A stretch of 64,000 nt of DNA from the NCBI RefSeq assembly GCF_022867865.1, contig NZ_JALIEC010000003.1, positions 372,001 to 436,000 on the forward strand, in the 5' to 3' direction. Within the stretch, counting starts at the first letter, position 1. Every line of letters starts with the position of its first letter. The notes under the pieces are model-generated. The model saw nothing but the letters and a program-made list of their open reading frames with translations. It did not search any database and was not told the DNA's origin. Both the position numbers and the translations under genes were made by a program. The DNA comes from Phaeobacter sp. J2-8. GTDB taxonomy: Bacteria > Pseudomonadota > Alphaproteobacteria > Rhodobacterales > Rhodobacteraceae. Below, one piece after another: positions 1 to 19,783 of this stretch.

Positions 1-81
1 GGTGGTCGATTGGGTCATGGCAGAGGCGGTTGTTGCGAAGCCAGCCAGGGCGAGGGCGGTGATTGCGATGATATTTTTCAT
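1..81 (-). CDS. Small secreted protein, array copy 8 (type C), cut by window edge
   Basis: Only the first 27 codons (signal peptide and MTQSTT of the mature protein) lie in the window. The visible bases match copy 5. Continuation to the left is expected. Confidence 0.85.
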   Translation of the reverse strand, partial: MKNIIAITALALAGFATTASAMTQSTT

Positions 82-152
82 GTTAGTCTCCTATTTTCGA
101 TGTCTGGGCCTTGGGCCCGAATTGGATTGAGCGGTCAGATCAGGCTGTCAGC

Positions 153-386
153 TTAGCTGCCGGCCACGAGCGAACGGACGGTCGAACGAACTTCGCTGTC
201 GTTGTCGCCGGAGTGGATTGTCGCCAGGATCAGAGCCACACGCTCGTCGCTGAGGTTCGACAGATCGGCATTCGGTGCATAGCGTTCGATTTGCTGCAGG
301 TTGCCGGTGGTCGACTGTGTCATGGCGGAGGCGGTTGTTGCGAAGCCAGCCAGGGCGAGGGCGGTGATTGCGATGATGTTTTTCAT
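153..386 (-). CDS. Small secreted protein, array copy 7 (type A)
   Basis: Same product with Asn62. The spacer to the next copy holds a short GGGCC-TTG-GGCCC hairpin, present in every spacer, with no T-run, so it is unlikely to terminate transcription. Confidence 0.88.
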   Translation of the reverse strand: MKNIIAITALALAGFATTASAMTQSTTGNLQQIERYAPNADLSNLSDERVALILATIHSGDNDSEVRSTVRSLVAGS

Positions 387-457
387 GGTAGTCTCCTATT
401 TTCGATGTCTGGGCCTTGGGCCCGAATTGGATTGAGCTGTCAGATCAGGCTGTCAGC

Positions 458-691
458 TTAGCTGCCGGCTACGAGCGAACGGACGGTCGAACGGACTTCG
501 CTGTCGCTGTCGCCGGAGTGGATTGTCGCCAGGATCAGAGCCACACGCTCGTCGCTGAGGTTCGACAGATCGGCATTTGGTGCATAGCGTTCGATTTGCT
601 GCAGGTTGCCGGTGGTCGACTGTGTCATGGCGGATGCGGTTGTTGCGAAGCCAGCCAGGGCGAGGGCGGTGATTGCGATGATGTTTTTCAT
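458..691 (-). CDS. Small secreted protein, array copy 6 (type B)
   Basis: Same product with Ser62. Near-identical to copy 3; both carry the same silent variant at residue 38 and the same GCA codon in the signal peptide. Confidence 0.88.
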   Translation of the reverse strand: MKNIIAITALALAGFATTASAMTQSTTGNLQQIERYAPNADLSNLSDERVALILATIHSGDSDSEVRSTVRSLVAGS

Positions 692-762
692 GGTAGTCTC
701 CTATTTTCGATGTCTGGGCCTTGGGCCCGAATTGGATTTAGCTGTCAGATCAGGCTGTCAGC

Positions 763-996
763 TTAGCTGCCGGCTACGAGCGAACGGACGGTCGAACGGA
801 CTTCGCTGTCGCTGTCGCCGGAGTGGATTGTCGCCAGGATCAGAGCTACACGCTCGTCGCTGAGGTTCGACAGGTCGGCATTCGGTGCATAGCGTTCGAT
901 TTGCTGCAGGTTGCCGGTGGTCGATTGGGTCATGGCAGAGGCGGTTGTTGCGAAGCCAGCCAGGGCGAGGGCGGTGATTGCGATGATATTTTTCAT
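763..996 (-). CDS. Small secreted protein, array copy 5 (type C)
   Basis: Same product with Ser62. Three silent changes at the signal-peptide cut site and early mature region, plus one in the third codon, define type C and recur in the truncated copy at the left edge. Confidence 0.88.
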   Translation of the reverse strand: MKNIIAITALALAGFATTASAMTQSTTGNLQQIERYAPNADLSNLSDERVALILATIHSGDSDSEVRSTVRSLVAGS

Positions 997-1067
997 GTTA
1001 GTCTCCTATTTTCGATGTCTGGGCCTTGGGCCCGAATTGGATTGAGCGGTCAGATCAGGCTGTCAGC

Positions 1068-1301
1068 TTAGCTGCCGGCCACGAGCGAACGGACGGTCGA
1101 ACGAACTTCGCTGTCGTTGTCGCCGGAGTGGATTGTCGCCAGGATCAGAGCCACACGCTCGTCGCTGAGGTTCGACAGATCGGCATTCGGTGCATAGCGT
1201 TCGATTTGCTGCAGGTTGCCGGTGGTCGACTGTGTCATGGCGGAGGCGGTTGTTGCGAAGCCAGCCAGGGCGAGGGCGGTGATTGCGATGATGTTTTTCA
1301 T
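1068..1301 (-). CDS. Small secreted protein, array copy 4 (type A)
   Basis: Same product with Asn62. I see no nucleotide difference between this unit and copy 7, including the spacer upstream of the ribosome binding site. Confidence 0.88.
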   Translation of the reverse strand: MKNIIAITALALAGFATTASAMTQSTTGNLQQIERYAPNADLSNLSDERVALILATIHSGDNDSEVRSTVRSLVAGS

Positions 1302-1372
1302 GGTAGTCTCCTATTTTCGATGTCTGGGCCTTGGGCCCGAATTGGATTGAGCTGTCAGATCAGGCTGTCAGC

Positions 1373-1606
1373 TTAGCTGCCGGCCACGAGCGAACGGACG
1401 GTCGAACGGACTTCGCTGTCGCTGTCGCCGGAGTGGATTGTCGCCAGGATCAGAGCCACACGCTCGTCGCTGAGGTTCGACAGATCGGCATTTGGTGCAT
1501 AGCGTTCGATTTGCTGCAGGTTGCCGGTGGTCGACTGTGTCATGGCGGATGCGGTTGTTGCGAAGCCAGCCAGGGCGAGGGCGGTGATTGCGATGATGTT
1601 TTTCAT
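1373..1606 (-). CDS. Small secreted protein, array copy 3 (type B)
   Basis: Same 77-residue product with Ser62. It differs from copy 6 (915 bp away) by a single silent base near the 3' end, showing that the two are products of a recent block duplication. Confidence 0.88.
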   Translation of the reverse strand: MKNIIAITALALAGFATTASAMTQSTTGNLQQIERYAPNADLSNLSDERVALILATIHSGDSDSEVRSTVRSLVAGS

Positions 1607-1677
1607 GGTAGTCTCCTATTTTCGATGTCTGGGCCTTGGGCCCGAATTGGATTTAGCTGTCAGATCAGGCTGTCAGC

Positions 1678-1911
1678 TTAGCTGCCGGCTACGAGCGAAC
1701 GGACGGTCGAACGGACTTCGCTGTCGCTGTCGCCGGAGTGGATTGTCGCCAGGATCAGAGCTACACGCTCGTCGCTGAGGTTCGAAAGATCGGCATTCGG
1801 TGCATAACGTTCGATTTGCTGCAGGTTGCCGGTGGTCGACTGTGTCATGGCGGATGCGGTTGTTGCGAAGCCAGCCAGGGCGAGGGCGGTGATTGCGATG
1901 ATGTTTTTCAT
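1678..1911 (-). CDS. Small secreted protein, array copy 2 (type C)
   Basis: The protein is identical to copy 1 except Ser for Asn at residue 62. This is the most diverged type C unit: it has silent changes in the codons around residues 36-44 and lacks the silent changes at the signal-peptide cut site that mark the other C units. A Shine-Dalgarno TAGGAGACT precedes the ATG. Confidence 0.88.
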   Translation of the reverse strand: MKNIIAITALALAGFATTASAMTQSTTGNLQQIERYAPNADLSNLSDERVALILATIHSGDSDSEVRSTVRSLVAGS

Positions 1912-1982
1912 GATAGTCTCCTATTTTCGATGTCTGGGCCTTGGGCCCGAATTGGATTGAGCGGTCAGATCAGGCTGTCAGC

Positions 1983-2216
1983 TTAGCTGCCGGCCACGAG
2001 CGAACGGACGGTCGAACGAACTTCGCTGTCGTTGTCGCCGGAGTGGATTGTCGCCAGGATCAGAGCCACGCGCTCGTCGCTGAGGTTCGACAGATCGGCA
2101 TTCGGTGCATAGCGTTCGATTTGCTGCAGGTTGCCGGTGGTCGACTGGGTCATGGCGGATGCGGTTGTTGCGAAGCCAGCCAGGGCGAGGGCGGTGATTG
2201 CGATGATGTTTTTCAT
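1983..2216 (-). CDS. Small secreted protein, array copy 1 (first in transcription order, type A)
   Basis: A 77-residue protein of unknown function. Residues 1-21 form a clear Sec signal peptide (Lys-Asn start, hydrophobic core, TASA before the predicted cut), leaving about 56 residues. The mature part has no cysteine and is rich in Ser, Asp and Arg. It contains the stretch ERYAPNADLSNLSDERVALI and ends RSLVAGS, which suggests a short helical domain. This copy has Asn at position 62. It differs from all others in its upstream sequence: the ribosome binding site here is AAAAGGAACAG, seven bases from the ATG, whereas the rest have TAGGAGACT. It is therefore probably the founder or the promoter-proximal gene of a polycistronic array. 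I recognise no family name. Confidence 0.9.
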   Translation of the reverse strand: MKNIIAITALALAGFATTASAMTQSTTGNLQQIERYAPNADLSNLSDERVALILATIHSGDNDSEVRSTVRSLVAGS

Positions 2217-2649
2217 AATTCTGTTCCTTTTGTTCTCTATGGTCCCGGTGTGGGACTGTCTGTCTTACGAAGACTGTGTGTCTTTCCGTCGGTGGTCGCT
2301 TCCGACAACACAGCATCTGGGCCCACAGCCCGGAGAACTCAAATCACGCAAATGCACACGGCCGCTCACCAAAAGGTGTGCTTGACGATTGCGGTCCGGC
2401 TTCCTAGCCCCCCTCCAAAGCCTTTGTTTTCAGGGAATTTGTTGCGGGCTTTCAGCGCGAAATCACACGGGAACGCGGCAAAATTTCTGAATTGGAAATG
2501 TCGTGCAAAGAGTAAACATTTGTTGTGCTTTTGTGCACATGGCCGGGTGAAATCAAATCTCACGGTGCGGTGAACAACGGCGATGTTTTGATCGGATCTG
2601 CGTGATCGTAAAAGGATGTCGCGTGAACAACATTTCAGTAAAAACGCTC
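2217..2649. other. Gene-free region between the array and the tRNA-Trp promoter
   Basis: No convincing gene. The part next to 2216 must hold the promoter and 5' untranslated region of the array. I looked on the minus strand for a TTGNNN-N16-18-TANNNT pair and found none that I trust. The middle part (about 2450-2560) is AT-richer than its surroundings. A GTGAACAAC 9-mer occurs twice around 2570-2635. Confidence 0.5.
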
Positions 2650-2678
2650 TTGATTTCATGTTGATGCGGTTGTATCCG
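2650..2678 (+). promoter_or_regulatory. Putative promoter of tRNA-Trp
   Basis: TTGATT and TATCCG are separated by 17 bases, and the -10 box ends 13 bases before the mature tRNA. Placement fits a stable-RNA promoter; assignment is by pattern only. Confidence 0.6.
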
Positions 2679-2691
2679 AACACCCGGCCTT

Positions 2692-2767
2692 AGGGGTATA
2701 GCTCAGCTGGTAGAGCGACGGTCTCCAAAACCGTAGGTCCCGGGTTCGAACCCTGGTGCCCCTGCCA
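2692..2767 (+). tRNA. trnW: tRNA-Trp (anticodon CCA)
   Basis: A 76-base cloverleaf with encoded CCA end. The acceptor AGGGGTA pairs with TGCCCCT (one T-G wobble), followed by discriminator G. The anticodon stem ACGGT/ACCGT holds the loop CTCCAAA, giving anticodon CCA. The T-arm has the standard GGTTCGAACCC core. In many alphaproteobacteria this tRNA lies directly upstream of secE; here about 18 kb of catabolic and osmolyte genes separate them. Confidence 0.98.
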
Positions 2768-2786
2768 TTTTCCGCACATTGTGCCG

Positions 2787-2804
2787 GTTCCACACCAGTG
2801 GAAC
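2787..2804 (+). other. Inverted repeat downstream of tRNA-Trp
   Basis: GTTCCAC-ACCA-GTGGAAC forms a perfect 7-bp stem 20 bases after the tRNA. It has no T-run, so it may serve 3' processing or weak termination rather than classical intrinsic termination. Confidence 0.4.
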
Positions 2805-3010
2805 AGTAAAACACCCCAATTTCCAAAATTTCTGCCGCTCTGGTTCCCTATGTGAAGCAGGCGCAATCGCATTGGCCATGCGTCGACGGCCCCCACAGGG
2901 GATCTTGCGGTGAAAAACGGTATTGGAAATCATCTTTGGCGGCATGTTATTGGATAACAGCGGTCGCCAAGTCAGCCGCGCTGAACTTTCTCATGCAGGA
3001 GACACCGAAG

Positions 3011-3322
3011 ATGAGTGGATTTCCCGTCATTGACGCGAGCGAGAACGTCAAACGACAGGTTTTGTCGGATCACCCGGACCTGATGGTTGTAGCGTTTCGC
3101 TTTGGCGCGACCGGGGCAGAGGGCGCGTTGCACAACCATCCCCACGTTCAATCCACCTATGTCGAAAGTGGCCGGTTCCGGTTCACAGTCGAAGGTGTGG
3201 TGACCGAAGTGGCCCAAGGGGACAGTTTTGTCGTGCCGTCAAATGCCGAACACGGCTGTGTGTGCCTTGAACCCGGCACATTGGTCGATTGCTTCACGCC
3301 CCGCCGCGATGATTTTCTCTGA
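3011..3322 (+). CDS. KdgF-like cupin protein (first of two)
   Basis: A 103-residue single-domain cupin. It carries the metal-binding pattern LHNHPHVQST and a later EHGCVC, and ends with the same CFTPRRDDFL tail as the second cupin of this cluster (DIFTPHREDFL). KdgF proteins convert cyclic 4,5-unsaturated uronates from alginate or pectin breakdown into the linear keto-uronate. I chose the ATG at 3011 because AGGAG sits about ten bases upstream; the frame is open further upstream without cupin sequence. It is the only gene at this end of the cluster on the plus strand and faces the reductase gene tail to tail. An alternative is an uncharacterised sugar-binding cupin. Confidence 0.8.
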   Translation: MSGFPVIDASENVKRQVLSDHPDLMVVAFRFGATGAEGALHNHPHVQSTYVESGRFRFTVEGVVTEVAQGDSFVVPSNAEHGCVCLEPGTLVDCFTPRRDDFL

Positions 3323-3354
3323 CAGAGGGTCAGCGGGGCGCAAACGCGGTGTGA

Positions 3355-4098
3355 TCAGCTAAAGACCACGCCGCCATTGATGTCCAGATTGGTGCCGGTC
3401 ATGAAGCCGGATTCGTCATTGGCGAGGAAGGCCACCAGATTGGCGACGTCCATCGGCACGCCCTGGCGTTTGACCGGGGCTGCGGCTTCGAAACCGCGGC
3501 GGACTTCGTCTTTGGTGTGGATATTGTGGAAATCCGTGTCCACCATACCGGGGCAAAGACCGTTGACGCGGATATCCGGGCCAAGCTCCTTTGCCAACCC
3601 GCGGGTCATGGTCATGATTGCTCCCTTGGACGTGGCATAGGCAATAGAGCCCGGCCCACCGCCGTCGCGGGCGGCCTGGCTTGCGATATTGACGATGGCA
3701 CCGGTTTTCATATGGGGCAGGCAGGCCTTGATCATCAGAAAGGTGCTGGTCAGGTTCAGATCCATCACCGCATTCCAATGCGCCAACGGCATTTCGGCGA
3801 TGGTCTTGCGGGCGATCAGCCCGCCGGTGTTGTTGACCAGAACATCGACCGATCCGAATTCAGCCACGGTTTTGTCCACCAGCGTCGCGACGCCTGCTTC
3901 GGTTGACAGATCGCCCTGAACCGCAATCGCCTTGCCGCCGGCGGCGGTGATTTCCGCGACGGTTTCTTCGGCACCGGCGCTGGAGGCAAAATAGTTGATT
4001 GCGACATTTGCGCCTTCTTGCGCCAGACGCACAGCACAGGCGCGCCCGATGTCACGTCCGCCACCGGTGACGATGGCTGTTTTTCCCTGAAGCTTCAT
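3355..4098 (-). CDS. SDR-family reductase, probable 4-deoxy-L-erythro-5-hexoseulose uronate (DEH) reductase
   Basis: A 247-residue classical short-chain dehydrogenase. The nucleotide-binding motif TGGGRDIG is at residues 11-18, NNTGG near 90, and the catalytic Ser with YATSK near residues 140-160. SDR enzymes such as A1-R of Sphingomonas reduce DEH, the linear product of alginate breakdown, to 2-keto-3-deoxygluconate. Position at the end of an alginate lyase/transport operon supports this role; the cofactor preference cannot be read. A GAGGA ribosome binding site precedes the ATG. It is separated from the upstream dehydrogenase by 115 bases with a strong hairpin. Confidence 0.75.
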   Translation of the reverse strand: MKLQGKTAIVTGGGRDIGRACAVRLAQEGANVAINYFASSAGAEETVAEITAAGGKAIAVQGDLSTEAGVATLVDKTVAEFGSVDVLVNNTGGLIARKTIAEMPLAHWNAVMDLNLTSTFLMIKACLPHMKTGAIVNIASQAARDGGGPGSIAYATSKGAIMTMTRGLAKELGPDIRVNGLCPGMVDTDFHNIHTKDEVRRGFEAAAPVKRQGVPMDVANLVAFLANDESGFMTGTNLDINGGVVFS

Positions 4099-4177
4099 GG
4101 TCTGTCCTCTGTTGCGCCTGGCCGGTTTTTGGGCCGGGGGTATTGGGCGGAATTTTTTTGGGGGGACGGCGTGTTGG

Positions 4178-4202
4178 ACCAGCGCCGACAGGCGGCGCTG
4201 GT
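4178..4202 (-). other. Intercistronic hairpin in the alginate operon
   Basis: A perfect 10-bp stem (ACCAGCGCCG with CGGCGCTGGT, 5-base loop) begins about ten bases after the stop of the upstream dehydrogenase gene. There is no T-run directly after it, so transcript processing or stabilisation is more likely than termination. Confidence 0.5.
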
Positions 4203-4213
4203 GCCAAGTCTGG

Positions 4214-5095
4214 TTATTTGTTCAGTGTCAGGAAGTAGTCAAAGATTTCCGGCACATTGCCGTCACCCTTGCCCGCGTCAACAGCTGCTTGCAGGTTGTT
4301 TGAGGTGCCTTCGGCAATCTCGGCCCGTGTGCCCAGATCCTCGGCCATCTTCAGGAAGTACCCCAGATCCTTGTTGGCATTGTTGATCGAGAAGCCCAGA
4401 TCACTGACACCGTCCACGGCGTAGTTCTTGCAGAACCCCATGAAGGGCGAATTCGACGGGCCGGTCGACATGATCTCATAGAGCTGCGCGCGATCAACAC
4501 CGGCACGATCGGCCACGGCAAAGGCTTGGCTCATGGTGCAGACGGTGGTCATGCCCATGAAGTTGTTGATCAGCTTGGTGGTGTGACCGGCCCCCAGCGC
4601 GCCGAGGTAGAAGACGTTTTCGCCCTGTTCGTCGAGCACCGGTTTGACCTTTTCAAAGGTCGCCTTGTCGCCCGCCGCCATGATGTTGAGCAAGCCGTCC
4701 TTGGCATGTGCCGGGGTGCGGCCCAGCGGTGCGTCAACCATACCTGCGCCTTTGGCGGCCAGATCGGCGCCAATCTTGCGGGTCGAGGCCGGGATCGAGG
4801 TGCCGAAGTCGATCAGCGTCGCGCCCTCTTTGATGCCGGCCAGAATGCCGTTGTCGCCATAGACGAGCTTTTCAACCACCTCCGAGGTGGTCAGGCACAA
4901 CATCACGATGTCGCTGGCTTCGGCCAATTCCTTGGGCGAGGTGGCCGCTTTGGCATTGCCACGGTCAAAGACGGTCTGCACGGCGTCCTTGTTGAGGTCC
5001 ATGACAACGAGTTCGTAGCCCCGTTTCTGAAGGTTTTCGACCATGTTGCCGCCCATGAGGCCGAGGCCGATGAAACCGATGACAGGTTTGGTCAT
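4214..5095 (-). CDS. Beta-hydroxyacid dehydrogenase (GarR/YihU/HIBADH superfamily)
   Basis: A 293-residue NAD(P)-dependent dehydrogenase. Residues 8-16 (FIGLGLMGG) form the dinucleotide-binding loop. The substrate loop reads DAPLGRTPAHAKDG rather than the DAPVSGG of tartronate semialdehyde reductase, and the catalytic Lys lies in TTKLINNFMG. The loop resembles YihU-type reductases of small aldehyde acids. In this cluster it may act on a uronate-derived semialdehyde, possibly as a second DEH reductase or downstream of the glucarate-dehydratase-like enzyme; the substrate is not certain. GGGAG lies ten bases before the ATG. Confidence 0.75.
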   Translation of the reverse strand: MTKPVIGFIGLGLMGGNMVENLQKRGYELVVMDLNKDAVQTVFDRGNAKAATSPKELAEASDIVMLCLTTSEVVEKLVYGDNGILAGIKEGATLIDFGTSIPASTRKIGADLAAKGAGMVDAPLGRTPAHAKDGLLNIMAAGDKATFEKVKPVLDEQGENVFYLGALGAGHTTKLINNFMGMTTVCTMSQAFAVADRAGVDRAQLYEIMSTGPSNSPFMGFCKNYAVDGVSDLGFSINNANKDLGYFLKMAEDLGTRAEIAEGTSNNLQAAVDAGKGDGNVPEIFDYFLTLNK

Positions 5096-5133
5096 GCCGT
5101 GTTCTCCCTTTGGTATTCTGTATTTGTGTTGGT

Positions 5134-5466
5134 TCAGAGGAAATCTTCGCGGTGAGGCGTGAAGATATCCAAAAGCGTGCCTGCCTCAAGACAGGTCGCG
5201 CCATGTTCGATGTTGGGCTGTTTATAGAGAGAGTTCCCGGCAGACACGATGTAAGTGTCATCGCCGACGGTGAACTCGAACTTGCCCGAGATCACATAGG
5301 TGATCTGTTCGTGTGGGTGGTGATGGCGCGCGGCCACGGTGCCGGTGTCGAAATGGACTTCGACACACATTGCGTTGTTGTTATAGGCCGCCACCTTGCG
5401 GGTCAGCCCGCCACCGGCGTCGAACAGTTTGTTCTCTTTGCCGGGAAAGTAGTTCTTTACGGTCAT
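5134..5466 (-). CDS. kdgF: KdgF, uronate-linearising cupin
   Basis: A 110-residue single-domain cupin. The metal-binding cluster ARHHHPHEQITYV is near residues 45-57, with a second His in NIEHGATC. KdgF opens the ring of 4,5-unsaturated uronate, a step between the exo-lyase and the reductase. It sits directly downstream of the PL15 lyase gene (43-base gap) and upstream of the dehydrogenase, so gene order follows the pathway. The ATG is preceded by GGAG at a normal distance. Confidence 0.85.
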   Translation of the reverse strand: MTVKNYFPGKENKLFDAGGGLTRKVAAYNNNAMCVEVHFDTGTVAARHHHPHEQITYVISGKFEFTVGDDTYIVSAGNSLYKQPNIEHGATCLEAGTLLDIFTPHREDFL

Positions 5467-5509
5467 CTTGGGTCTCCGGGTCGTGTTTGGTCTGCGCCGA
5501 TATGGCGGA

Positions 5510-7828
5510 TCAGGTATTGGCCAGCTTTTTCATCACTACTTTGAACGTGTTTTCGTCCGCGTCGGTGAAATACAGGTCGGCATCATAGCCCTGGTCATCC
5601 ATGAAGTTGAAAATCCGTTTCGGTTCTTCCAGACGATATGGCACCAGCAATGTCGCAATCCGGTGACGCGTGGCTGCCGGGTATTGCGCGTGCAGGCAAG
5701 TGCTTTCTGGCAGTCCCGCGTAATCCGCCGGGTCAACGCCGGGGAAACCGGTGACCTGTGTCAGTTCGGGTTTGCCCGCCTCGGACCAGACGACCTGGCC
5801 GTAGAAGCCCGCCTTTTGTCCGGTGTTGCGGAACGAGGTTTTGCCCAGATCGTAAGGTTGATTGGCATGCAGAAGCCAGTCGATGGTGACCGGTTCGCTG
5901 GCATCGACCTTGTCGACGATCACGAAATAGCTGCCGCGCACGAAATAGATTTCGCGTTCGGCCAGCGTCACCTCGGGCGAGAGCGATTGATAGGCCGCTG
6001 TGGCATCGCCTTTGATATAGACGTGATCGTCATGTTCTTCGGCGGCCAGGATCTTGCCGGTTGCGGCCATCGCCTTGGCCTTGTCCTTTTCGGCGTACTG
6101 GCCCTTGCCGTTGATCAGGATGGCGTTCTTGGACCGGGTCTGGCGGCGCCATTCGCGGTGCATGGTGGAATTGAACGCCACATAGTACCCCGACTGGATC
6201 GCCATGTCTTCGCCATAGGCGGCCATGCAGAACGCGTTCTGGTCGCCGTGGCTGTGGCTGATCGAGCCGAATTTGCTGGATTTGAAGACAAACTGAACAT
6301 GTTTGTCCGGGTTGGCCATTTCGTGCTGGATACCGACCCAGCCGATCCCCTTGAAATGGCACATGCCAGAGGGCGGATCGCTGGCCTCGACCTCGGGGAA
6401 ATCGGTGAGGTAGGTCAGTTCGTCGAAATTGGTGTCCCACCAGCCCCAGTTATAAAAGGCGCCTTCGGTGCCGGGGTTCAGCCGGGCGAGTTCCTCGTGA
6501 TACCATTGATAGGCACCATTGCCGGTGACGCCCGCGTATTGGCGCAGGTTGATCCCGGTCTTGATGCAGGGCAGATCGCCCTGTGTCGAGTTATCACCAA
6601 ATGTGGCGCGGCGGGTGTTCGGCGCCTTGCAGAACAGCGGGAAATCCCCGGTGTTGCGGAAGAAGGGGCGCTCATACAGGTCGATGCCGGTAAAGGATTT
6701 GATCCGGTTGGCGGCCTCGATCAGATAGGCCATGCCCATCATCCAGTAATTTGTACCCTCCGCCCAGCCGCCGTCGCTGTCGCCCCAGGGGGAATAGACG
6801 GTGGCAAGGAATTCGATGCAATAGTTGAGCCAGTCGCGGGCCTCGTCGTCTTCATCTTCGCCCAGCAACGCAATCAGCGCCGGCACAAGGGTCAGCGAAA
6901 CCGAGCGCACCGCATGGCTGTCATAGGGGAACAGGTGGATCTTGGCGTTGATGATCGCATGTTCGGCAATGTCGCGGGTGCGTTCCTTCAGGGCCGCGCG
7001 TACCTTGGCGCGTTCGTCTTCGTCCATCTGGTCGTGCAGCCAGTCATAGCCCCAGGCCAGTGCATTACAGACCCGATACGCCCACTCATCTGTATAGGCA
7101 CGGCTGGTGGTGCCCATCGGATCCCATTCGGCAACTGACAACAACCATTCCTTGGCGCGGGCCAGCATGGCGGCGTCTTGCGTCACCTGACCGCCGATGG
7201 CGAGGTGGCGAATGGCATACATCACCTCCTGAAGGTCGATGTAGGTCTGACGCCAGACCGGGGCGGTGCGTTGGTGTCCGGGATAGCCCGCAGGTTCCGG
7301 CGTGATGTCACGGTCCATCCAGGGCAGGACGGATTTGTCATAGAAATTCGCCCATGTGCAGTGATCTGCATCGGCCTTTACCGCATCGCGGAAGGTGGCC
7401 AGACGATCGGCGTTCAACCACAGGCGCGGGTGGCTTTGCGGCGATTTGGCAAAGCGTTGCTTGCGCGTTGGCAGCGGGGTCTTTGGCAATGTGTCGGTGA
7501 TGGTGAAGCTGCGGGTGCTGCTCCAGCCCGAGGCGGGTGCGCCGGCGTCGTCACAGACCGCATAGGCCCAGTGATATTGCCCGGGCTCCAGCGCCACATC
7601 GGGGGTGAAGAAATTCAGCGGGATATTGGCAAAGACCCGTGTGTCGTTGCCGAAATTCGGATCGGTCGAGATGCGCAGCACGTATTGCGCCTCGTCTTCG
7701 ATGACGGGCAACCAGGTAAAGCGCGGCGGATTCTCGGTGATCTCACTGGTGGCGTCGGGCGCGTATTGGATCGTCAGGCGACCGGTTTTGGGTTCATCGA
7801 GCGTGGGAAGGACTGCGGCGCCGGGCAT
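5510..7828 (-). CDS. PL15-type exolytic alginate (oligoalginate) lyase
   Basis: A 772-residue protein that resembles, over its whole length as I recall it, the Agrobacterium exo-alginate lyase Atu3025. An N-terminal beta domain (about 1-115) begins with the fibronectin-like stretch ENPPRFTWLP. An alpha/alpha barrel with PYDSHAVRS (His305) and WAEGTNYWM (Tyr361) follows, then the heparinase II/III-like beta-sandwich with SISHSHGDQNAF. His305 and Tyr361 correspond by position to the catalytic pair reported for Atu3025 (from memory). No signal peptide is visible, so it acts in the cytoplasm on imported oligomers. The product would be unsaturated uronate monomers. The ribosome binding site is weak (AAAGA). 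Confidence 0.88.
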   Translation of the reverse strand: MPGAAVLPTLDEPKTGRLTIQYAPDATSEITENPPRFTWLPVIEDEAQYVLRISTDPNFGNDTRVFANIPLNFFTPDVALEPGQYHWAYAVCDDAGAPASGWSSTRSFTITDTLPKTPLPTRKQRFAKSPQSHPRLWLNADRLATFRDAVKADADHCTWANFYDKSVLPWMDRDITPEPAGYPGHQRTAPVWRQTYIDLQEVMYAIRHLAIGGQVTQDAAMLARAKEWLLSVAEWDPMGTTSRAYTDEWAYRVCNALAWGYDWLHDQMDEDERAKVRAALKERTRDIAEHAIINAKIHLFPYDSHAVRSVSLTLVPALIALLGEDEDDEARDWLNYCIEFLATVYSPWGDSDGGWAEGTNYWMMGMAYLIEAANRIKSFTGIDLYERPFFRNTGDFPLFCKAPNTRRATFGDNSTQGDLPCIKTGINLRQYAGVTGNGAYQWYHEELARLNPGTEGAFYNWGWWDTNFDELTYLTDFPEVEASDPPSGMCHFKGIGWVGIQHEMANPDKHVQFVFKSSKFGSISHSHGDQNAFCMAAYGEDMAIQSGYYVAFNSTMHREWRRQTRSKNAILINGKGQYAEKDKAKAMAATGKILAAEEHDDHVYIKGDATAAYQSLSPEVTLAEREIYFVRGSYFVIVDKVDASEPVTIDWLLHANQPYDLGKTSFRNTGQKAGFYGQVVWSEAGKPELTQVTGFPGVDPADYAGLPESTCLHAQYPAATRHRIATLLVPYRLEEPKRIFNFMDDQGYDADLYFTDADENTFKVVMKKLANT

Positions 7829-7864
7829 CGGTCAGGTCTTTCTTTTGGGTATAAAAGGGGGGGT

Positions 7865-7889
7865 GGTGCGGCCGAGGATCGGCCGCACC
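7865..7889 (-). other. Stem-loop between binding-protein and lyase genes
   Basis: An 11-bp perfect stem (GGTGCGGCCGA with TCGGCCGCACC, 3-base loop) lies 25 bases after the binding-protein stop. Such hairpins often stabilise the upstream message so that the binding protein is made in excess over downstream enzymes; partial termination is also possible. Confidence 0.55.
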
Positions 7890-7914
7890 CTTGTCATATC
7901 GGGAGGAGGGGGGC

Positions 7915-9483
7915 TTAGCCGCCGTACTGGCGTTCGTAGGCCGAGTTCATGACTTCGAGAACGTCTTCGTAGCCCATCTTGTTCAAGGCAGCCACGTAGT
8001 CATCCCAGTCTTCCTGGATGTCGCCGGTGCCAAGGATCCAGGCCTGCTGACGTTCCAGCATGTAGGTCTCGATCGACGGGTAGTATTTGTCAAAGACGGT
8101 CTGTTCATCTTCGTTGAAGGCCACGCCGAGGAACTGTTCAACCAGCAGATCCTGGGTGTCGTACAGTTCGATCCCCTTGCGGGCACTGTCGCGGGTCCAC
8201 TGCCATTCATAGCGGTAGTCCTGCGGATAGCCGCGATAGACCTGCGCGCCTTCCAGATACATCTGGCTGTTGACCGGCTGACCGGAATTCAGGACCTCGT
8301 CCTTGTAGACCGGCTCGCCGTCGACCATGTCCCAGGTCTTGCCCTCGACACCGAAGTTGGCCAGCAGTGCGCCTTCTTCCGAGAACCAGTAGTCAAAGTA
8401 TTTGATGGTCTCGACAGGATGCTCGTTCGAGAAGCTGATCGCCCAGCCATCGGGCTTCATCGGGATACGACGGTTTTCTTCGATCCGCTGACCGCTCACC
8501 GATTTCGGCGGCAGGAACGGGATGAAGTTGAAGCCGTCGACCTTGTCGGCCAGCGCGATGTTGTAGCCAGAGGTGGAGGCAAACCAGTCATGCGTCATGC
8601 CGCCCAGGTTTTCACCCAGCAGGTAGTCGCGGGCCGAAGAACCACGGGTAAAGACCTCTGCGTCGATCAGGCCCTCTGCGTACCAGTCGGCGATATTGGC
8701 CAGACCGTCACGATACGCTTCCTGTGCGTAGGGGTGAACAACCTTGCCGTCCTTGATGTAGAACTGGTGATAGACATCCGCCCCGGTCGAGCGTGCATCC
8801 CAGAGGTTCAAAAGACGCAGAACTTCTTCCCAGTCGCGCACGAAGAAGGGGATTTCGTCCTTTTCGCCGTTGCCGTTGGGATCCTGGTCGCGGAAGGCCA
8901 CCAGCACGTCATGAAGCTCGTCCACGTTGTCGGGCTGTTCCAGACCCAGCGCATCGAGCCAGTCCTGACGGACAAACCAGGCGCGGGCATATTTGCCGTC
9001 GGGCAGGTAGGGAATGTAATAGACATTGCCGTCAAAGGCCTGGATCGCTTTCCAGATGTCCGGGTGCTCGTCGAACCATGCCTTGATGTTGGGCGCATGT
9101 TCGTCAACCAGCTCGTTCAGCGGCTGGAACGCACCCTGGGGGCCGTATTCGTTGACCGGCTGCTTGATCTTCGCACCGCCGACGATGTCGGGCAGGTTGC
9201 CGGTGGCCAGAAGCAGGTTCATCGCTTCGGACTGATCGGTCGAGTTGCGGCCGGATGTCTTGTCGATCAGATGGACGTTGGTCTTCTCCCGTGCCACTTC
9301 CTCGACCGGATAGATCTTCGATGTGTCACCGCCGGGGCCATATCCCTGGGCGCGGGCCCAGTGCATGTGGATTGTCAGTTCCAGCGGCTCGTCCACGATG
9401 GGCAGATGGCCTTCGGCAAGTGCCGGGGCTGTCAGTGCGGTGGTTCCGAGGATGGCAGCGGCTGCCAGTTTCAAAGTTCGCAT
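7915..9483 (-). CDS. Alginate-oligosaccharide ABC transporter, periplasmic binding protein (AlgQ-like)
   Basis: A 522-residue extracellular solute-binding protein with a signal peptide (MRTLKLAAAAIL... ending APALA). It is larger than typical sugar-binding proteins, as are the Sphingomonas AlgQ proteins, and contains a DPNGNGEKDEIPF loop of the kind that binds calcium in AlgQ. Neighbouring permease and ATPase genes complete an importer. I chose the ATG at 9483 because GGGAGGACACC precedes it and the signal peptide starts there; the frame is open further upstream without signal-peptide features. Substrates are probably alginate di- to oligosaccharides. Confidence 0.87.
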   Translation of the reverse strand: MRTLKLAAAAILGTTALTAPALAEGHLPIVDEPLELTIHMHWARAQGYGPGGDTSKIYPVEEVAREKTNVHLIDKTSGRNSTDQSEAMNLLLATGNLPDIVGGAKIKQPVNEYGPQGAFQPLNELVDEHAPNIKAWFDEHPDIWKAIQAFDGNVYYIPYLPDGKYARAWFVRQDWLDALGLEQPDNVDELHDVLVAFRDQDPNGNGEKDEIPFFVRDWEEVLRLLNLWDARSTGADVYHQFYIKDGKVVHPYAQEAYRDGLANIADWYAEGLIDAEVFTRGSSARDYLLGENLGGMTHDWFASTSGYNIALADKVDGFNFIPFLPPKSVSGQRIEENRRIPMKPDGWAISFSNEHPVETIKYFDYWFSEEGALLANFGVEGKTWDMVDGEPVYKDEVLNSGQPVNSQMYLEGAQVYRGYPQDYRYEWQWTRDSARKGIELYDTQDLLVEQFLGVAFNEDEQTVFDKYYPSIETYMLERQQAWILGTGDIQEDWDDYVAALNKMGYEDVLEVMNSAYERQYGG

Positions 9484-9591
9484 GGTGTCCTCCCTTTTGC
9501 GAAATTCAAATTTTGGTACCCTTGGGGCCCGCGAGGGCCCGAAGGTGATCTTGGGGGACGGCGCATTCACGATTGCGCTGTCCCGGGTCCG

Positions 9592-10475
9592 TCATTCCTT
9601 CACACCGCCCAGCAGGATGCCCTTGCTGAAATATTTCTGGAGGAAGGGATAGATAAGCAGGATCGGGATGATCGAGCAGACGATGATCGCGGCGGTCACG
9701 GTTTCGACCGAATAGGCCGCAGTCAGCAGGCTGGTTGCAAATTCCTCGTCGTCGGAAAGCTCGACGATGACTTTGCGCAGATAGACCTGAAGCGGGATCT
9801 TCTCTTCGTCCTGCAAAAGCACCATGGCCCAGAAGAAGCCGTTCCAGCGCGAGACGATGCAGAACAGGGCTACCGTGGCAATCGCGGGCTTTGACAGCGG
9901 CATGTAGACCTTCCAGAGAACCTGGAATTCGTTGGCGCCGTCCATCCGCGCCGCCTCTTCGAAGGATTGCGGAATGCCCTCAAAGAAGTTGCGCAAAAGG
10001 ATGATGTTGAAGCCGTTGACCGCAAAGCCGATGATAATGCCGAGGTAGCTGTCCAGGAGCCCGAGGTCCCGCATGTTCAGGAAGAACGGGATCAGGCCTG
10101 CGTTGAACCACATGGTAAAGGCCACCACCAGGTTCCAGAACCGACGCCCGTAAAGCTGGGGCTTGGACAGGGCATAGGCGCCGGGGATGATGAACAGCAG
10201 GCTCATGATCGTGCCGCCGATCGTGTAGATGAACGTGTTCATGTACGACGACCAGAACAGCGGCTCGCTCAGCACCTGTTTGTAGGCCTCCAGCGTGAAG
10301 CCGACCGGGGTCAGGATCACATTGCCGGCCCGTGCCTCGAACCCGGTGCTCATCGACAGTGATGCGATGTAGATGAACGGGTAGAGGGTCGAGAGGGTGA
10401 ACAATCCGATGAGGACCATGTTCATGATGACGAACATCTTGTCGCCACGTGAATAGAGAGATTCATGTTGGTCAT
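9592..10475 (-). CDS. ABC transporter permease (AlgM2-like), frame break near its 5' end
   Basis: An inner-membrane permease with six predicted membrane segments and the EAA loop EEAARMDGANEFQVLWKVYM that contacts the ATPase. The uninterrupted frame begins at the ATG at 10437, but the codons just upstream in that frame (SLYSRGDK) look like the normal cytoplasmic N-terminus and have no start. The only well-placed starts, ATG at 10475 and 10466, are out of frame by one base. Adding one A to the AA at 10462-10463 joins them into MTNMKSLYSRGDKMFV. A one-base sequencing deficit is my preferred reading; otherwise translation starts at 10437 or 10428. Confidence 0.82.
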
Positions 10476-10490
10476 GACTGGTTCCCCCCC

Positions 10491-11495
10491 TTACCAGAGC
10501 GACGTGCGCGAATAGCGCTTGGAGATTGCGTTCGCCGTCATCACCAGCACAAAGGCCACCACCGCGTTGAACAGGCCCGCTGCTGCGGCAAGGTCGTACT
10601 GGCCGCCCTGGATACCCTGGCGATAGATGAAGGTGTTCACGACGTCGGCGGTCTCATATGTGGCCGGCTGATAGAGCAGGATGATCATCTCGAAGCTGAC
10701 CTCCAGCATGTTGCCGATGCGGATGATGAGCATGATGATGATGGTCGGAAGGATCGACGGCAATGTGATCTTCCACATCATCTGCCAGCGGCTGGCACCA
10801 TCGACCACAGCGGATTCATAGAGCGTCGGAGAGACCCCCGCGATGGCCGCGAGATAGACGATCGACTGGAACCCTGCCTCTTGCCAGATACCGGTGCCGA
10901 CAAAGATCGGACGGAACCATTCAGGCTTGGTCAGGAAGTAGATCGGATCGACCCCCAGCGCCCCAAGGAAGGTGTTGACGATGCCCGCACTTGGGGAAAA
11001 GGCCGTGATCACGATACCGGCGATGATCACCGAAGAGACGAAGTGCGGCAGATAGACGATGGTCTGGGCCGTCTTCTTGAAGGTCTGCTTCAGGATCTCG
11101 TTGAACATCAGCGCCAGAAGGATCGGCATGGGAAAGCCGAAGATCAGGCCATAGAAGCTGATGATGATCGTGTTGCGCAGGGCGCGAATGAACTGGTCAT
11201 TGCCGAACAGGGTCTGGAAATGCTCCAGCCCGATCCAGGGGCTGTTCGCCACGCCGCGGAAGATCGAATAATCCTTGAAGGCGATCTGAAGCCCGTACAT
11301 CGGTTTGTAGAGAAAGATCACGAGCCAGAGGATCGTCGGGACCAGCATGACATAGAGCTGCCATTCCCGTTTCATGTGATCGCCGACCCGCTGCATTGTG
11401 CTGGGCTTGCGGCGGCGCTGGGCTTCCTTTGCATCGAAGACAAGTTCTTCGGTCGTTGGCCCCCCGGCACCGGTGAAATTGGGATCGTTGCTCAT
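10491..11495 (-). CDS. ABC transporter permease (AlgM1-like)
   Basis: A 334-residue permease with a long cytoplasmic N-terminus (about 45 residues, as in AlgM1), six membrane segments, and an EAA loop YESAVVDGASRWQMMWKITL. Its start overlaps the stop of the ATPase gene by four bases (ATGA), indicating translational coupling. With the second permease it forms the heterodimeric channel of the oligouronate importer. Confidence 0.87.
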   Translation of the reverse strand: MSNDPNFTGAGGPTTEELVFDAKEAQRRRKPSTMQRVGDHMKREWQLYVMLVPTILWLVIFLYKPMYGLQIAFKDYSIFRGVANSPWIGLEHFQTLFGNDQFIRALRNTIIISFYGLIFGFPMPILLALMFNEILKQTFKKTAQTIVYLPHFVSSVIIAGIVITAFSPSAGIVNTFLGALGVDPIYFLTKPEWFRPIFVGTGIWQEAGFQSIVYLAAIAGVSPTLYESAVVDGASRWQMMWKITLPSILPTIIIMLIIRIGNMLEVSFEMIILLYQPATYETADVVNTFIYRQGIQGGQYDLAAAAGLFNAVVAFVLVMTANAISKRYSRTSLW

Positions 11496-12595
11496 TGTTC
11501 CAGCACCTGCCCGGGCAGCGCCTCGCCGGTTTTGGCGTCGAAGACCTTGACGAGGTTCGGTTCGATGGTGAAACCCTTGATGCCGTCCAGAATGTGCATC
11601 TGGCCGACGGTATCGGTGCGGATGACAAAGGGTTCACCCTGCAGGCTGGCATGGATCAGTGCCTCGGAGCCCAGTGTTTCCACCAGGTCGATGTCCAGCC
11701 CGACAAGGTTCGGGTCGTTTTGATCCGCAACCGACACGAATTCCGGGCGGATGCCCAGGATCACTTCCAGGCCGACGGCGTTGGTCAGTGCCGGGATCTG
11801 CTGAAGCTGGACGCGCTGGCCGTCGAATTCGGCGACAGGGCCCTGATCGCCGGCGGCGATGGTGGCCTTGACCATGTTCATTGGCGGCGACCCCAGGAAC
11901 CCGGCGACAAAGGTGTTTTTCGGATTCAGGAACAGGTCCATCGGGCTGCCGATCTGTTCGATCCGGCCGTCGTGCATGACGACGATGCGGTCGGCCAGGG
12001 TCATCGCTTCGACCTGGTCGTGGGTCACATAGATCGAGGTGACGCCGAGACGCTTGTGCAGGCGTTTGATTTCCGCCCGCATCTGGGTCCGCAGCTTGGC
12101 ATCAAGGTTGGACAGGGGTTCATCGAACAGGAACACCTTGGGGCGGCGCACGATGGCACGGCCCATGGCGACCCGCTGGCGCTGACCGCCCGACAGGTCC
12201 GCCGGACGACGTTCAAGATACGGTGTCAGGCCAAGGATGCCGCCAACCTCTTCGACAGAAGAGGCGATGGTTTCCTTGCTTTCCTTGCGGATACGCAGAC
12301 CAAAGGCGATATTGTCGGCGACGTTCAGATGCGGATAAAGCGCGTAGTTCTGGAACACCATCGCCACATCGCGATCCTTGGGTGCAACCCGGTTCACATG
12401 CCGGTCGTCAATTGTCAGGTCGCCGTCGGAAATCTCTTCCAGCCCCGCGATCATCCGCAAGGTTGTGGATTTTCCGCAGCCGGACGGACCGACCAAAACG
12501 ACAAATTCCTTTTCCTGTACTTCCAGGTCGATCCCATGGACCACCTGAACCGCACCATAGGCCTTTACGATGCCCTCTAAACGAACCCCTGACAT
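11492..12595 (-). CDS. ABC transporter ATPase (AlgS/MsmK/UgpC-like)
   Basis: A 367-residue sugar-type ATPase. Walker A is GPSGCGKST, the signature is LSGGQRQRVAMGRAI, Walker B is VFLFDEP, and the switch His is in YVTHDQ. A C-terminal TOBE domain follows residue 240. It powers the importer encoded immediately downstream and is the first gene of the long minus-strand operon. I placed the start at the ATG at 12595, which follows GGAGGGAGGGGAC; a TTG 15 bases upstream is in frame but lacks a site of its own. Confidence 0.9.
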   Translation of the reverse strand: MSGVRLEGIVKAYGAVQVVHGIDLEVQEKEFVVLVGPSGCGKSTTLRMIAGLEEISDGDLTIDDRHVNRVAPKDRDVAMVFQNYALYPHLNVADNIAFGLRIRKESKETIASSVEEVGGILGLTPYLERRPADLSGGQRQRVAMGRAIVRRPKVFLFDEPLSNLDAKLRTQMRAEIKRLHKRLGVTSIYVTHDQVEAMTLADRIVVMHDGRIEQIGSPMDLFLNPKNTFVAGFLGSPPMNMVKATIAAGDQGPVAEFDGQRVQLQQIPALTNAVGLEVILGIRPEFVSVADQNDPNLVGLDIDLVETLGSEALIHASLQGEPFVIRTDTVGQMHILDGIKGFTIEPNLVKVFDAKTGEALPGQVLEQ

Positions 12596-12703
12596 GTCCC
12601 CTCCCTCCAATTGACCCGCAACCGGCCGATGGCCCTGCGGTCGCTCACCCTGATCGCGGCCTCATGCCGTGAGCCGAGTGATGCGATTCGCTGAAACTTT
12701 CAT

Positions 12704-12735
12704 CTGGTATACTAGTAAGTAATCTGGAATACTAG
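12704..12735. promoter_or_regulatory. Tandem operators for the FadR-type GntR regulator
   Basis: CTGGTATACTAG (12704-12715) and CTGGAATACTAG (12724-12735) lie 20 bases apart centre to centre, two turns of the helix, in the 197-base gap between the divergent ATPase and dehydratase genes. The TGGTATACCA-like core matches sites of UxuR/ExuR-type FadR-family regulators. A third copy occurs at 14857. The position suits control of both divergent operons by the regulator encoded at 14126. Confidence 0.75.
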
Positions 12736-12792
12736 TATAAACATGAGAGTCGCAAATGAGGGAGGCGTCCGGTCCGGGACGGAGGAAATGCC

Positions 12793-14055
12793 ATGAAAAT
12801 CACCGAAGTTATCGTCACGCCAATCGCCATCCCGGATGTGCCGCTGGCCAATACCAAGGGCGTGCACCAATCGGTGTTTCTGCGGTCGGTCATTCAGGTG
12901 AAGACCGATACCGGCCTTGTCGGCCTTGCCGAAACATATGGCGCGGCGCGGACCTTGGATGGGTTGCGCGCGGTGCAGGCGCGGCTGGAGGGGCTGGACC
13001 CCTATGACCTGCGCGATCTGCGCCGCCGGATCGAAGCGGCGCTGCCGGATGCGGGCGGGATCAATGCCCTGACCGCCCTGGCCGATCACAAGGTGGTGGA
13101 TGTGGTCTATTCTGCGTTTGAAATCGCCTGCCTTGATTTGCGCGGCAAGGAGGTCGGGCGGCCAATATACGAACTTCTCGGCGGGGCGACGCGCAAGACG
13201 ATCAGCTTTGGCGGCTATCTTTTCTTCAAATTCGAAAAGCAGGACACCACCTTTGGCCCCGATATCATGGGCGAAGTGATGACGCCGGATGCGCTTGTGG
13301 CGCAGGCCCAGGAGTTTGTCGGCCAATACGGTTTCAAATCTCTGAAGCTGAAGGGCGGCGTTCTTGAGCCCGATCTCGAAGTCGAAACCATGTTGAAACT
13401 GCGCGAGACCTTTCCGCATCATCCTTTGCGGATTGATCCGATGGGGGCCTGGACCGTGCCAACGGCGCTGAAGGTGATCAAGGATCTTGGCGGTGTCGAG
13501 GGGGGCGTTCTGGAATATCTCGAAGATCCCTGTCGCGGCATGGAGGCCATGGCGGAATTGTCGGCCCAGACCGATATGCCGCTGGCGACCAACCTAGTGG
13601 TGGTCGAATTCGAAGAGATCTTTGAAGCAGTCAAAAAGGATGCGGTGCAGATTGTCCTGTCGGACCATCACTACTGGCGCGGGGCGACGGGTGCGGTGCA
13701 ACTGGGCGACATGTGTCGCGCGGCGGGGCTGGGCGTGTCGATGCATTCCAATTCGCATCTGGGGATTTCATTGGCGGCCATGTGCCATGTGGCGGCGGCG
13801 ACCCCAAATCTGACCTATGATTGTGACACGCATTATCCCTGGTCGAGCAAGGAAATCGTCAAAGGTGGGCGACCTGTTTTCCGCAACGGCACTGTGCAAG
13901 TGCCCGAGGGGCCGGGGCTGGGCGTTGAGCTGGATCATGCTGCGGTCGCGGAACTACATGATCTCTATGAGCGGGCGATGGTGCGCGACCGCGACGATAC
14001 CGACGAGATGTTGAAATACATCCCGAACTATGTGCGCCAGGTGCCACGGTGGTAA
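12793..14055 (+). CDS. Enolase-superfamily dehydratase, glucarate dehydratase-like
   Basis: A 420-residue member of the enolase superfamily closest to glucarate dehydratase. It shows the KxK pair (LKLKGG), metal ligands in RIDPMGAW and LEDPC, ATNLVV, the catalytic His in DHHYWRG, and HSNSHLGISL. The family removes water from aldarate sugar acids to give keto-deoxy acids. Here it may handle a sugar acid formed alongside alginate breakdown; the exact substrate is open, since classical glucarate dehydratase is not needed for alginate. GGAGG precedes the ATG, and the gntR gene follows 70 bases downstream in the same operon. Confidence 0.8.
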   Translation: MKITEVIVTPIAIPDVPLANTKGVHQSVFLRSVIQVKTDTGLVGLAETYGAARTLDGLRAVQARLEGLDPYDLRDLRRRIEAALPDAGGINALTALADHKVVDVVYSAFEIACLDLRGKEVGRPIYELLGGATRKTISFGGYLFFKFEKQDTTFGPDIMGEVMTPDALVAQAQEFVGQYGFKSLKLKGGVLEPDLEVETMLKLRETFPHHPLRIDPMGAWTVPTALKVIKDLGGVEGGVLEYLEDPCRGMEAMAELSAQTDMPLATNLVVVEFEEIFEAVKKDAVQIVLSDHHYWRGATGAVQLGDMCRAAGLGVSMHSNSHLGISLAAMCHVAAATPNLTYDCDTHYPWSSKEIVKGGRPVFRNGTVQVPEGPGLGVELDHAAVAELHDLYERAMVRDRDDTDEMLKYIPNYVRQVPRW

Positions 14056-14125
14056 AAACAGCCGCCAAGGCAACTGGATATTAAGGCGAAACATGGCTAT
14101 CTAGCCGTTATCAGGAGGAATCGAG

Positions 14126-14818: not shown

Positions 14819-14838
14819 TTCCGGCCCGGTGCCCGGTG

Positions 14839-14868
14839 GTTGACCTCTCTGGTCAACTGGAATACCAG
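14839..14868. promoter_or_regulatory. Third GntR operator plus adjoining inverted repeat
   Basis: The palindrome CTGGAATACCAG (14857-14868) lies between gntR and the MATE gene and matches the paired sites at 12704. A perfect inverted repeat GTTGACC-TCTCT-GGTCAAC (14839-14857) abuts it and shares one base. It suggests that the exporter gene has its own regulated promoter within the same regulon. Confidence 0.65.
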
Positions 14869-14988
14869 ATACTGACAGCTTGACTTTTTATGATGTCACA
14901 GGTCGCGCGCCCATTGGGCTGCGGGTTGTGACGATGAGCGTTTATCCTGGTTAACAGGCGCATCCATTGCACCGGAAATGTTCCGAAT

Positions 14989-16355: not shown

Positions 16356-16555
16356 ACACGGGTTAAAGTCGTCCTGTCTGCGCTCGTCTGACCTGGCAGA
16401 TGATTAATTTTCGGGCTGTCGTGGGCCCAGACGCGTGGATTGCCCGATTTAATGGCGTTTGGGGCGGCGTTGGATTTGACACCGGCGGCCATGACACGTG
16501 TGAATTGACCTGGTGGGGTGTGACCCCCCGCTGACTAAAAGGATTGGACGACCTC

Positions 16556-18301: not shown

Positions 18302-18330
18302 AATCGCCTTGGCGTCCAGACCATTGGTAA

Positions 18331-18462: not shown

Positions 18463-18526
18463 GGTCAGATGAAAGGCGGGGGCCCGAGACCAACAGGTAG
18501 GGGCGCGACGCTAAAACTGGGTGGGG

Positions 18527-19753: not shown

Positions 19754-19783
19754 CGGGGGTCGCCTTTGCGATCTGGGAATGGG

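What the first reader, a model, noticed from the sequence alone, without database searches (positions are those of the whole stretch)
1..2216. Tandemly amplified family of near-identical small secreted proteins
Eight adjacent genes encode the same 77-residue exported protein. Across seven complete copies the only residue change is Asn/Ser62, while several codons carry silent differences. That pattern shows strong protein-level constraint together with recent amplification, as for a protein needed in high dose (structural, antimicrobial, immunity or stress-related). I recognise no described family. This is my first candidate for an undescribed system.
Basis: partly seen in the sequence, partly recalled or inferred. 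Interest (0 to 1): 0.82.

Follow-up and report, generated by a model that had tools for sequence, protein, structure and literature searches.

The report
Dose-amplified secreted-protein operon in roseobacters
A marine bacterium carries eight head-to-tail copies of one tiny exported protein behind a single conserved switch, and some of its relatives carry the same undescribed protein family, often also amplified, apparently because the cell envelope needs a lot of it.

Summary
Seven complete copies and the start of an eighth lie in the window; the genome search finds eight (305-bp period, minus strand, interior of a 700-kb contig). The protein matches no curated family over cut-off (Pfam, NCBIfam, PHROGs) and no solved fold. 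It is one branch of a family of Sec-exported ~45-residue three-helix domains found in 86 of 394 sampled genomes of its family (Rhodobacteraceae), often beside tRNA-Trp. Of 43 genomes examined, 18 have tandem copies. Within arrays silent codon changes outnumber replacements 212 to 31, so copies are kept working. The array looks like one transcription unit: one promoter, eight ORFs with ribosome-binding sites, a predicted terminator. A 94-nt promoter element is conserved across genera, is found once in this genome, and contains a site resembling the published CenR operator (envelope regulator; 0 of 3000 column permutations as good). Best reading: a polycistron of identical ORFs that floods the periplasm or surface with a small acidic helical protein under envelope control, in the manner of Spy/CpxP but not homologous by the tests run. 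Amplification, constraint and promoter are well supported; location, abundance and CenR control are inferred; biochemical activity is unknown.

The parts
1..81 (-). start of the eighth, promoter-distal copy (cut by the window edge; complete at G000:C11:371848-372081)
153..386 (-). copy of the 77-aa exported protein (N62)
458..691 (-). copy (S62)
763..996 (-). copy (S62)
1068..1301 (-). copy (N62)
1373..1606 (-). copy (S62)
1678..1911 (-). copy (S62)
1983..2216 (-). first, promoter-proximal copy (N62); its upstream region differs from the 71-nt inter-copy spacers
387..457 (-). example of the 71-nt inter-copy spacer: GGGCC-CAA-GGCCC inverted repeat, Shine-Dalgarno-like AGGAG; no promoter-model match
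2299..2389 (-). conserved promoter/leader element (model R1), the only match found in the genome
2366..2379 (-). CenR-like operator (ACACCTTTTGGTGA on the minus strand)
2341..2348 (-). second half-site (CGTGATTT), 22 bp downstream of the first
2315..2322 (-). -10-like element GCCCAGAT (CC[CT]A-N2-T in most of the aligned relatives)
2692..2767 (+). tRNA-Trp, divergent from the array; frequent neighbour of the family

Best explanation
The array is a single transcription unit selected for dose. One conserved promoter (2299-2389, minus strand) drives a message carrying eight near-identical ORFs, each with its own ribosome-binding site, ended by a predicted intrinsic terminator just outside the window. 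Amplifying the ORF and its ribosome-binding site, not the promoter, multiplies product per transcript. Each ORF makes a Sec-exported, acidic, cysteine-free three-helix protein (about 56 residues after cleavage) that most likely works in large amounts in the periplasm or at the cell surface. The operator resembles the published binding site of CenR, the regulator of the CenK-CenR envelope two-component system, so the likeliest role is an envelope-stress or envelope-maintenance protein, for example a Spy/CpxP-like holdase or an abundant structural component. Shown here by sequence analysis: the array, purifying selection within arrays, the family, the conserved promoter found once in the genome. 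Predicted: signal peptide (by inspection), fold, terminator. Inferred: single transcript, periplasmic or surface location, high abundance, CenR control. Hypothesis only: holdase or structural activity.
For: Eight copies, no other relative found in the genome. One promoter-model match in 4.8 Mb at E<=10 (958 first-look candidates, 150 scored), upstream of the first copy only. Predicted terminator after the last copy, 9-pair stem then TTCTAATTT, at L021:11763-11784. Promoter conserved: 41 matches over 55 stretches = 21 used to build the model, 2 duplicates of those, 18 others; 14 of the 18 have E<1e-4 and all 14 end 39-84 nt before the next single-domain family ATG. 26 of 149 genomes match at E<=0.01. 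Within arrays 212 synonymous versus 31 non-synonymous codon differences, 30 pairs. Tandem copies in 18 of 43 genomes, a pair at least 95% identical in 12. Arrays at assembly breaks: 18 of 49 stretches within 1 kb of a contig end, 2.1 expected. Codon adaptation 0.655-0.724 against 0.557 +/- 0.057 for the same protein with average usage; 11 ribosomal genes average 0.740. AxA-type cleavage site in 63 of 65 distinct single-domain proteins, median mature pI 4.75, no Cys. CenR matrix from 31 published sites: fixed-column mean 7.50, 0 of 3000 column permutations as good, 0 of 400 position-permuted matrices as good. PMC9275681 (section 11 part 1 and found passages seen) states that 29 of 31 CenR target units encode envelope or periplasmic products.
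Against: No expression, localisation or binding data. The CenR motif comes from Rhodobacter sphaeroides and was chosen after I had seen the GTGA repeats; no other regulator's matrix was scored; presence of CenKR in this genome was not tested. Scored singly the window's site (8.7) is not exceptional, a plain best-site scan was weak, the left half-site is imperfect, and the better-scoring reading is opposite in direction to most published activating sites, though the motif is nearly palindromic. R1 finds no other promoter like it in the genome, so this is not a plain CenR site. In 25 of 43 genomes no tandem pair was counted, and copies in some arrays are diverged (50 of 75 residues alike in L024). 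The array's codon adaptation lies only at the 70th-92nd percentile of 50 window genes and the copies are not independent. Terminator-like sites are no commoner than chance in that scan (5 against 4.4). A leader hairpin is not specific: a control region upstream is also more stable than shuffles.
Confidence: 0.55

Rival explanations
1. The proteins are secreted antimicrobial or signalling peptides, amplified for yield.
For: Small, exported by prediction, multi-copy.
Against: Mature products are mostly acidic (pI below 7 in 92% of 65) and Cys-free; copies are held near-identical in 12 genomes rather than diversified; 2-4-domain relatives exist in 19 of 43 genomes; no dedicated exporter or immunity gene seen by eye beside the window's array; relatives' neighbours were not annotated.
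Confidence: 0.1
2. Neutral expansion: the array is a by-product of unequal recombination with no dose advantage.
For: Hint of block-wise duplication; copy number differs within the genus; no tandem pair counted in 25 of 43 genomes.
Against: 212 silent versus 31 replacement differences within arrays; near-identical tandem copies in 12 genomes, each with its own genus label; codon usage shifted towards ribosomal genes.
Confidence: 0.15
3. Assembly artefact.
For: Long near-identical repeats are error-prone; 18 of 49 relatives' stretches lie at contig ends.
Against: Units differ at up to 12 of 305 bases (48-55 for the promoter-proximal unit); interior of a 700-kb contig; different arrays in other assemblies, including a 3.9-Mb contig. 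Exact copy number remains unproven.
Confidence: 0.04
4. Dose-amplified exported protein, but controlled by a regulator other than CenR and not part of an envelope response.
For: The promoter has features beyond the CenR-like site: TTCAAG, a second CGTGA, conserved leader start, and is the only one of its kind found in the genome.
Against: Match to the CenR matrix beats column permutations and permuted matrices.
Confidence: 0.16

Closest known systems
Spy/CpxP (LTXXQ) periplasmic stress chaperones (recalled)
   Same: Small, all-helical, Sec-exported, without cofactor; an L[ST]xx[QE] helix start is common here (49 of 65; strict L[ST]xxQ 23 of 65). Strong induction of Spy by envelope two-component systems is recalled, not looked up.
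   Different: No LTXXQ profile match, no fold match at E<=0.001 and no Spy among listed PDB hits; smaller per domain; no tandem ORF array recalled. The motif may be a generic helix cap.
CenK-CenR regulon of Rhodobacter sphaeroides (PMC9275681: section 11 part 1 and found passages seen)
   Same: Operator resembles TGA-N8-TGA; targets mostly envelope or periplasmic.
   Different: Array promoter is longer, with a second half-site and a conserved leader start, and is unique in the genome by model R1; I could not tell whether any gene in that paper's Table 1 belongs to this family.
gvpA gas-vesicle gene arrays (recalled)
   Same: Adjacent near-identical small ORFs for a protein needed in bulk.
   Different: Cytoplasmic and, as far as recalled, unrelated; not tested here.
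HdeA/HdeB acid chaperones (recalled)
   Same: Small abundant helical periplasmic proteins.

Membership tests
LTXXQ / Spy-CpxP | match to the LTXXQ profile | tested here: not met
   no LTXXQ hit for 2 sequences at E<=1 and 7 at E<=5
LTXXQ / Spy-CpxP | LTxxQ motifs | tested here: inconclusive
   L[ST]xxQ in 23 of 65, L[ST]xx[QE] in 49 of 65 distinct single-domain proteins
LTXXQ / Spy-CpxP | Spy-like fold | tested here: not met
   no PDB match at E<=0.001 for one-domain or three-domain models; no Spy among listed hits; small helical models give weak statistics
LTXXQ / Spy-CpxP | chaperone activity | not testable with these tools
   needs protein
CenR regulon | CenR-type operator upstream | tested here: met
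   0 of 3000 column permutations and 0 of 400 permuted matrices reach the observed score; left half-site imperfect and single-site scan weak
CenR regulon | CenR binding and CenKR-dependent expression | not testable with these tools
   needs ChIP or RNA-seq
CenR regulon | CenK and CenR encoded in this genome | not tested
   homologues reported in several other alphaproteobacteria (PMC9275681, passages)
Any curated protein family | profile match over cut-off | tested here: not met
   Pfam, NCBIfam, PHROGs: only weak sub-threshold hits; PDB sequences best E 0.096 (30). PADLOC not searched
Phage or plasmid cargo | relatives on phages or plasmids | tested here: not met
   no match in phage records (17), viral contigs (26) or plasmids (16, 57, 58)
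Antimicrobial peptide / bacteriocin | cationic or modified peptide with export or immunity partners | tested here: inconclusive
   median pI 4.75, no Cys speaks against; partners judged by eye only for the window's array

The most novel reading that the evidence does not exclude
An undescribed, lineage-specific class of envelope proteins in Rhodobacteraceae whose supply is tuned by the number of identical ORFs inside one stress-controlled message (ORF-level gene dosage), with copy number changing between species by recombination and hidden by short-read assemblies.
Probability: 0.35. Interest if true: 0.75.

Novelty: new variant of a known kind. Interest (0 to 1): 0.6.

Why it matters
It defines an unnamed protein family with a recognisable promoter in a major group of marine bacteria and suggests that these cells need a small envelope protein in bulk. 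Arrays of identical ORFs behind one promoter are a natural system for testing whether copy number sets protein dose and how selection keeps copies identical. Many of the stretches examined break at these arrays, so copy numbers are probably undercounted in draft genomes.

Tried and rejected
Mobile-element cargo: rejected; no phage, plasmid or viral-contig relatives and a recurrent chromosomal site. Known fold: no PDB or viral-model match at E<=0.001. Rfam: only the tRNA in window 1-3500 at E<=1. Hairpins between copies as a general feature: rejected; present in the window and in some arrays (G119, L087) but absent or weak in others (L067, L072, L073, L096; 45). Leader hairpin: first looked strong on 27 of the 35 leaders (summed energy -289.1 against -178.5, sd 10.9, 0 of 200 shuffles as low; 74), but I had chosen windows by hand and dropped eight rows (L063, L064, L067 as near-duplicates; L024, L026, L029, L074, L077 for lack of a clear anchor). 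With mechanical windows on 30 loci it is -337.6 against -249.4 (sd 11.9), and a 44-nt control upstream of the promoter is also low (-303.2 against -240.3, sd 11.0; 106); the window's own hairpin has z -0.15. So it is no longer claimed. Promoter shared by other genes of the genome: none found; the simple pattern GTGA-N18-GTGATTT gives 3 matches, one of them the array. Published motifs of ChvI (PMC9731502, passages: TTGC-N3-GCAA; N-GCC-N8-GCC) do not resemble the operator (by eye). Best-site CenR scan was weak: 0 of 32 loci forward and 12 of 32 reverse above the shuffled 95th percentile; only the aligned-column tests (83, 96, 99) are strong. A first codon-usage run (87) used a contaminated reference and was replaced by 89. 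The rpsU query was mis-framed, so its counts are not used. Class-wide search: hits outside the family are few and weak. The ten literature searches showed no description of the family in listings; only three papers were opened. Dinoroseobacter vesicle paper PMC7901474 (passages only) lists abundant unnamed periplasmic proteins that I could not link.

Full report
OBSERVATION. The array is confirmed: period 305, 97% matches, no indels. The window has seven complete copies and the start of an eighth; the genome search finds eight, all in this array, at C11:371848-374216. The window begins at C11:372001. Residue 62 is the only amino-acid difference (4 N, 4 S); 13 other codons vary silently. Unit differences (0 between units 1 and 4, 1 between 2 and 5, 5 between 0 and 3, 9 between 3 and 6) hint at duplication of about three units at a time.

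FAMILY. The protein has no match over cut-off in Pfam, NCBIfam or PHROGs and no PDB sequence match better than E 0.096. A 13-sequence profile found relatives in 86 of 394 genomes of the same family at E<=0.001. A 33-sequence profile found 126 of 390 in an order-level sample; some weak hits may be signal-peptide matches, so this is an upper figure. In both searches only 14 candidates per genome were scored, so copy numbers are capped. In a class-wide sample 10 of 289 genomes matched, two of them in the family; the other eight had E no better than 4.8e-5 and partial matches. G003, of the window's genus, has a contig of the same length as the M. algicola contig, so it is probably that strain (inference).

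DOMAIN. The unit is about 45 residues (consensus LAEIERYAPNADVSTLTDAQVAALLNIIHSGDSESEKRAQVRAIL) after a signal peptide. The mature window protein is predicted as three helices (mean pLDDT 81.0, pTM 0.59). A three-domain relative is predicted as helices throughout (pLDDT 82.4, pTM 0.39, so domain packing is uncertain). Proteins with 2-4 domains occur in 19 of 43 genomes. Two relatives look like lipoproteins by eye (L061; L098), which fits an envelope location. Of 65 distinct single-domain proteins, 63 have an AxA-type cleavage site, none has Cys in the mature part, and the median pI is 4.75.

LOCUS. I fetched 49 stretches from 43 genomes, chosen from the hits and so biased to strong ones. tRNA-Trp lies within 5 kb in 32 of 49; several of the other 17 are cut by contig ends. 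Where it is present, single-domain genes lie on its 5' side and divergent, except in L066, L096 and one ORF of L075. The gap from tRNA to the nearest such ATG is 425-528 bp in 18 of 27 stretches. All five named loci also have tRNA-Trp, but L057 and L059 are the same contigs as L025 and L027. Arrays lie within 1 kb of a contig end in 18 of 49 stretches against 2.1 expected; four of the 18 come from G119. This suggests that arrays break assemblies and are undercounted.

AMPLIFICATION AND CONSTRAINT. Tandem single-domain genes occur in 18 of 43 genomes, with a pair at least 95% identical in 12 (identity without gaps, so unequal-length pairs are underestimated). Over 30 near-identical adjacent pairs in 15 stretches there are 212 silent and 31 replacement codon differences. 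Proteins stay alike while DNA drifts, so the copies are under selection. Array codon usage is closer to that of 11 ribosomal genes than expected for the same protein (0.655-0.724 against 0.557 +/- 0.057), though only at the 70th-92nd percentile of 50 window genes, and the copies are not independent.

PROMOTER. Upstream regions of 21 loci share a block: TTCAAG-N2-CAA, CGTGA, 22 bp later CGTGATTT, then CC[CT]A-N2-T and TGGTGTCGGA. A sequence model of it matches once in the 4.8-Mb genome at E<=10, with 150 of 958 candidates scored, so the inter-copy spacers lack it. Over 55 stretches it gave 41 matches: the 21 used to build it, 2 duplicates, and 18 others. Of the 18, 14 have E<1e-4, and each ends 39-84 nt before the next single-domain ATG, also in stretches without tRNA-Trp. 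In 149 genomes 26 matched at E<=0.01. I examined ten of these, mostly weak: a family member by profile (E at most 5.2e-5) lies in six stretches, L124, L126, L130, L131, L132, L133. Five of those six genomes were already known carriers; of the five without an earlier match only one (G060, L124) proved to be a carrier, so weak matches include false ones. A predicted terminator follows the last copy, but that scan finds such sites at about the chance rate (5 against 4.4). A conserved leader hairpin was tested and is not claimed.

REGULATOR. PMC9275681 (section 11 part 1 and found passages seen) reports CenR binding TGA-N8-TGA upstream of 31 transcription units in Rhodobacter sphaeroides, 29 with envelope or periplasmic products. 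I chose CenR after seeing the repeats. A matrix from its 31 sites, scored on the 21 aligned operators, peaks at one column (mean 7.50); 0 of 3000 column permutations reach this, and with another pseudocount 0 of 400 permuted matrices do. The motif is nearly palindromic, so the better reverse reading (7.50) and the forward reading (2.82; 34 of 3000 permutations as good) describe the same 14 bases. A plain best-site scan was weak. I read this as good but indirect evidence for CenR, not proof.

MECHANISM. Shown by sequence: one promoter of this kind, eight ORFs, selection on the copies. Inferred: a polycistron in which ORF number multiplies yield, and an exported product acting in the envelope. 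The closest functional picture is an envelope-stress protein of the Spy/CpxP sort, but membership tests were negative. What the protein does there remains open.

NOVELTY. Dose-driven tandem arrays and small envelope-stress proteins are known kinds (recalled). The family, its promoter and the ORF-level amplification were not found in the libraries or in the listings of ten literature searches, which cover one open library only. I rate it a new variant of a known kind.

One search was run for this check. It confirmed the promoter-to-gene distances and the profile matches, and led me to drop the leader hairpin and to narrow the claim about weak promoter matches.

Noticed in passing
window 2768-20769: The secE hit lies 18 kb downstream of tRNA-Trp in the window; in 31 of the 32 fetched stretches where secE was found (of 54), a tRNA-Trp lies within 5 kb of it (compared by eye; two are duplicates). 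The first 12 kb hold cupin, dehydrogenase, polysaccharide-lyase-like and ABC transporter ORFs by eye: probably an inserted carbohydrate-use island.
   Followed up: no
   Followed up: partly
L061:893-1072 and L098 (domain at 7349-7426): Family members with a lipobox-like signal, suggesting membrane-anchored versions (by eye).
   Followed up: no
L067 and L068 (G413): A three-gene array with its promoter present at two sites on different contigs, only one of them beside tRNA-Trp.
   Followed up: no
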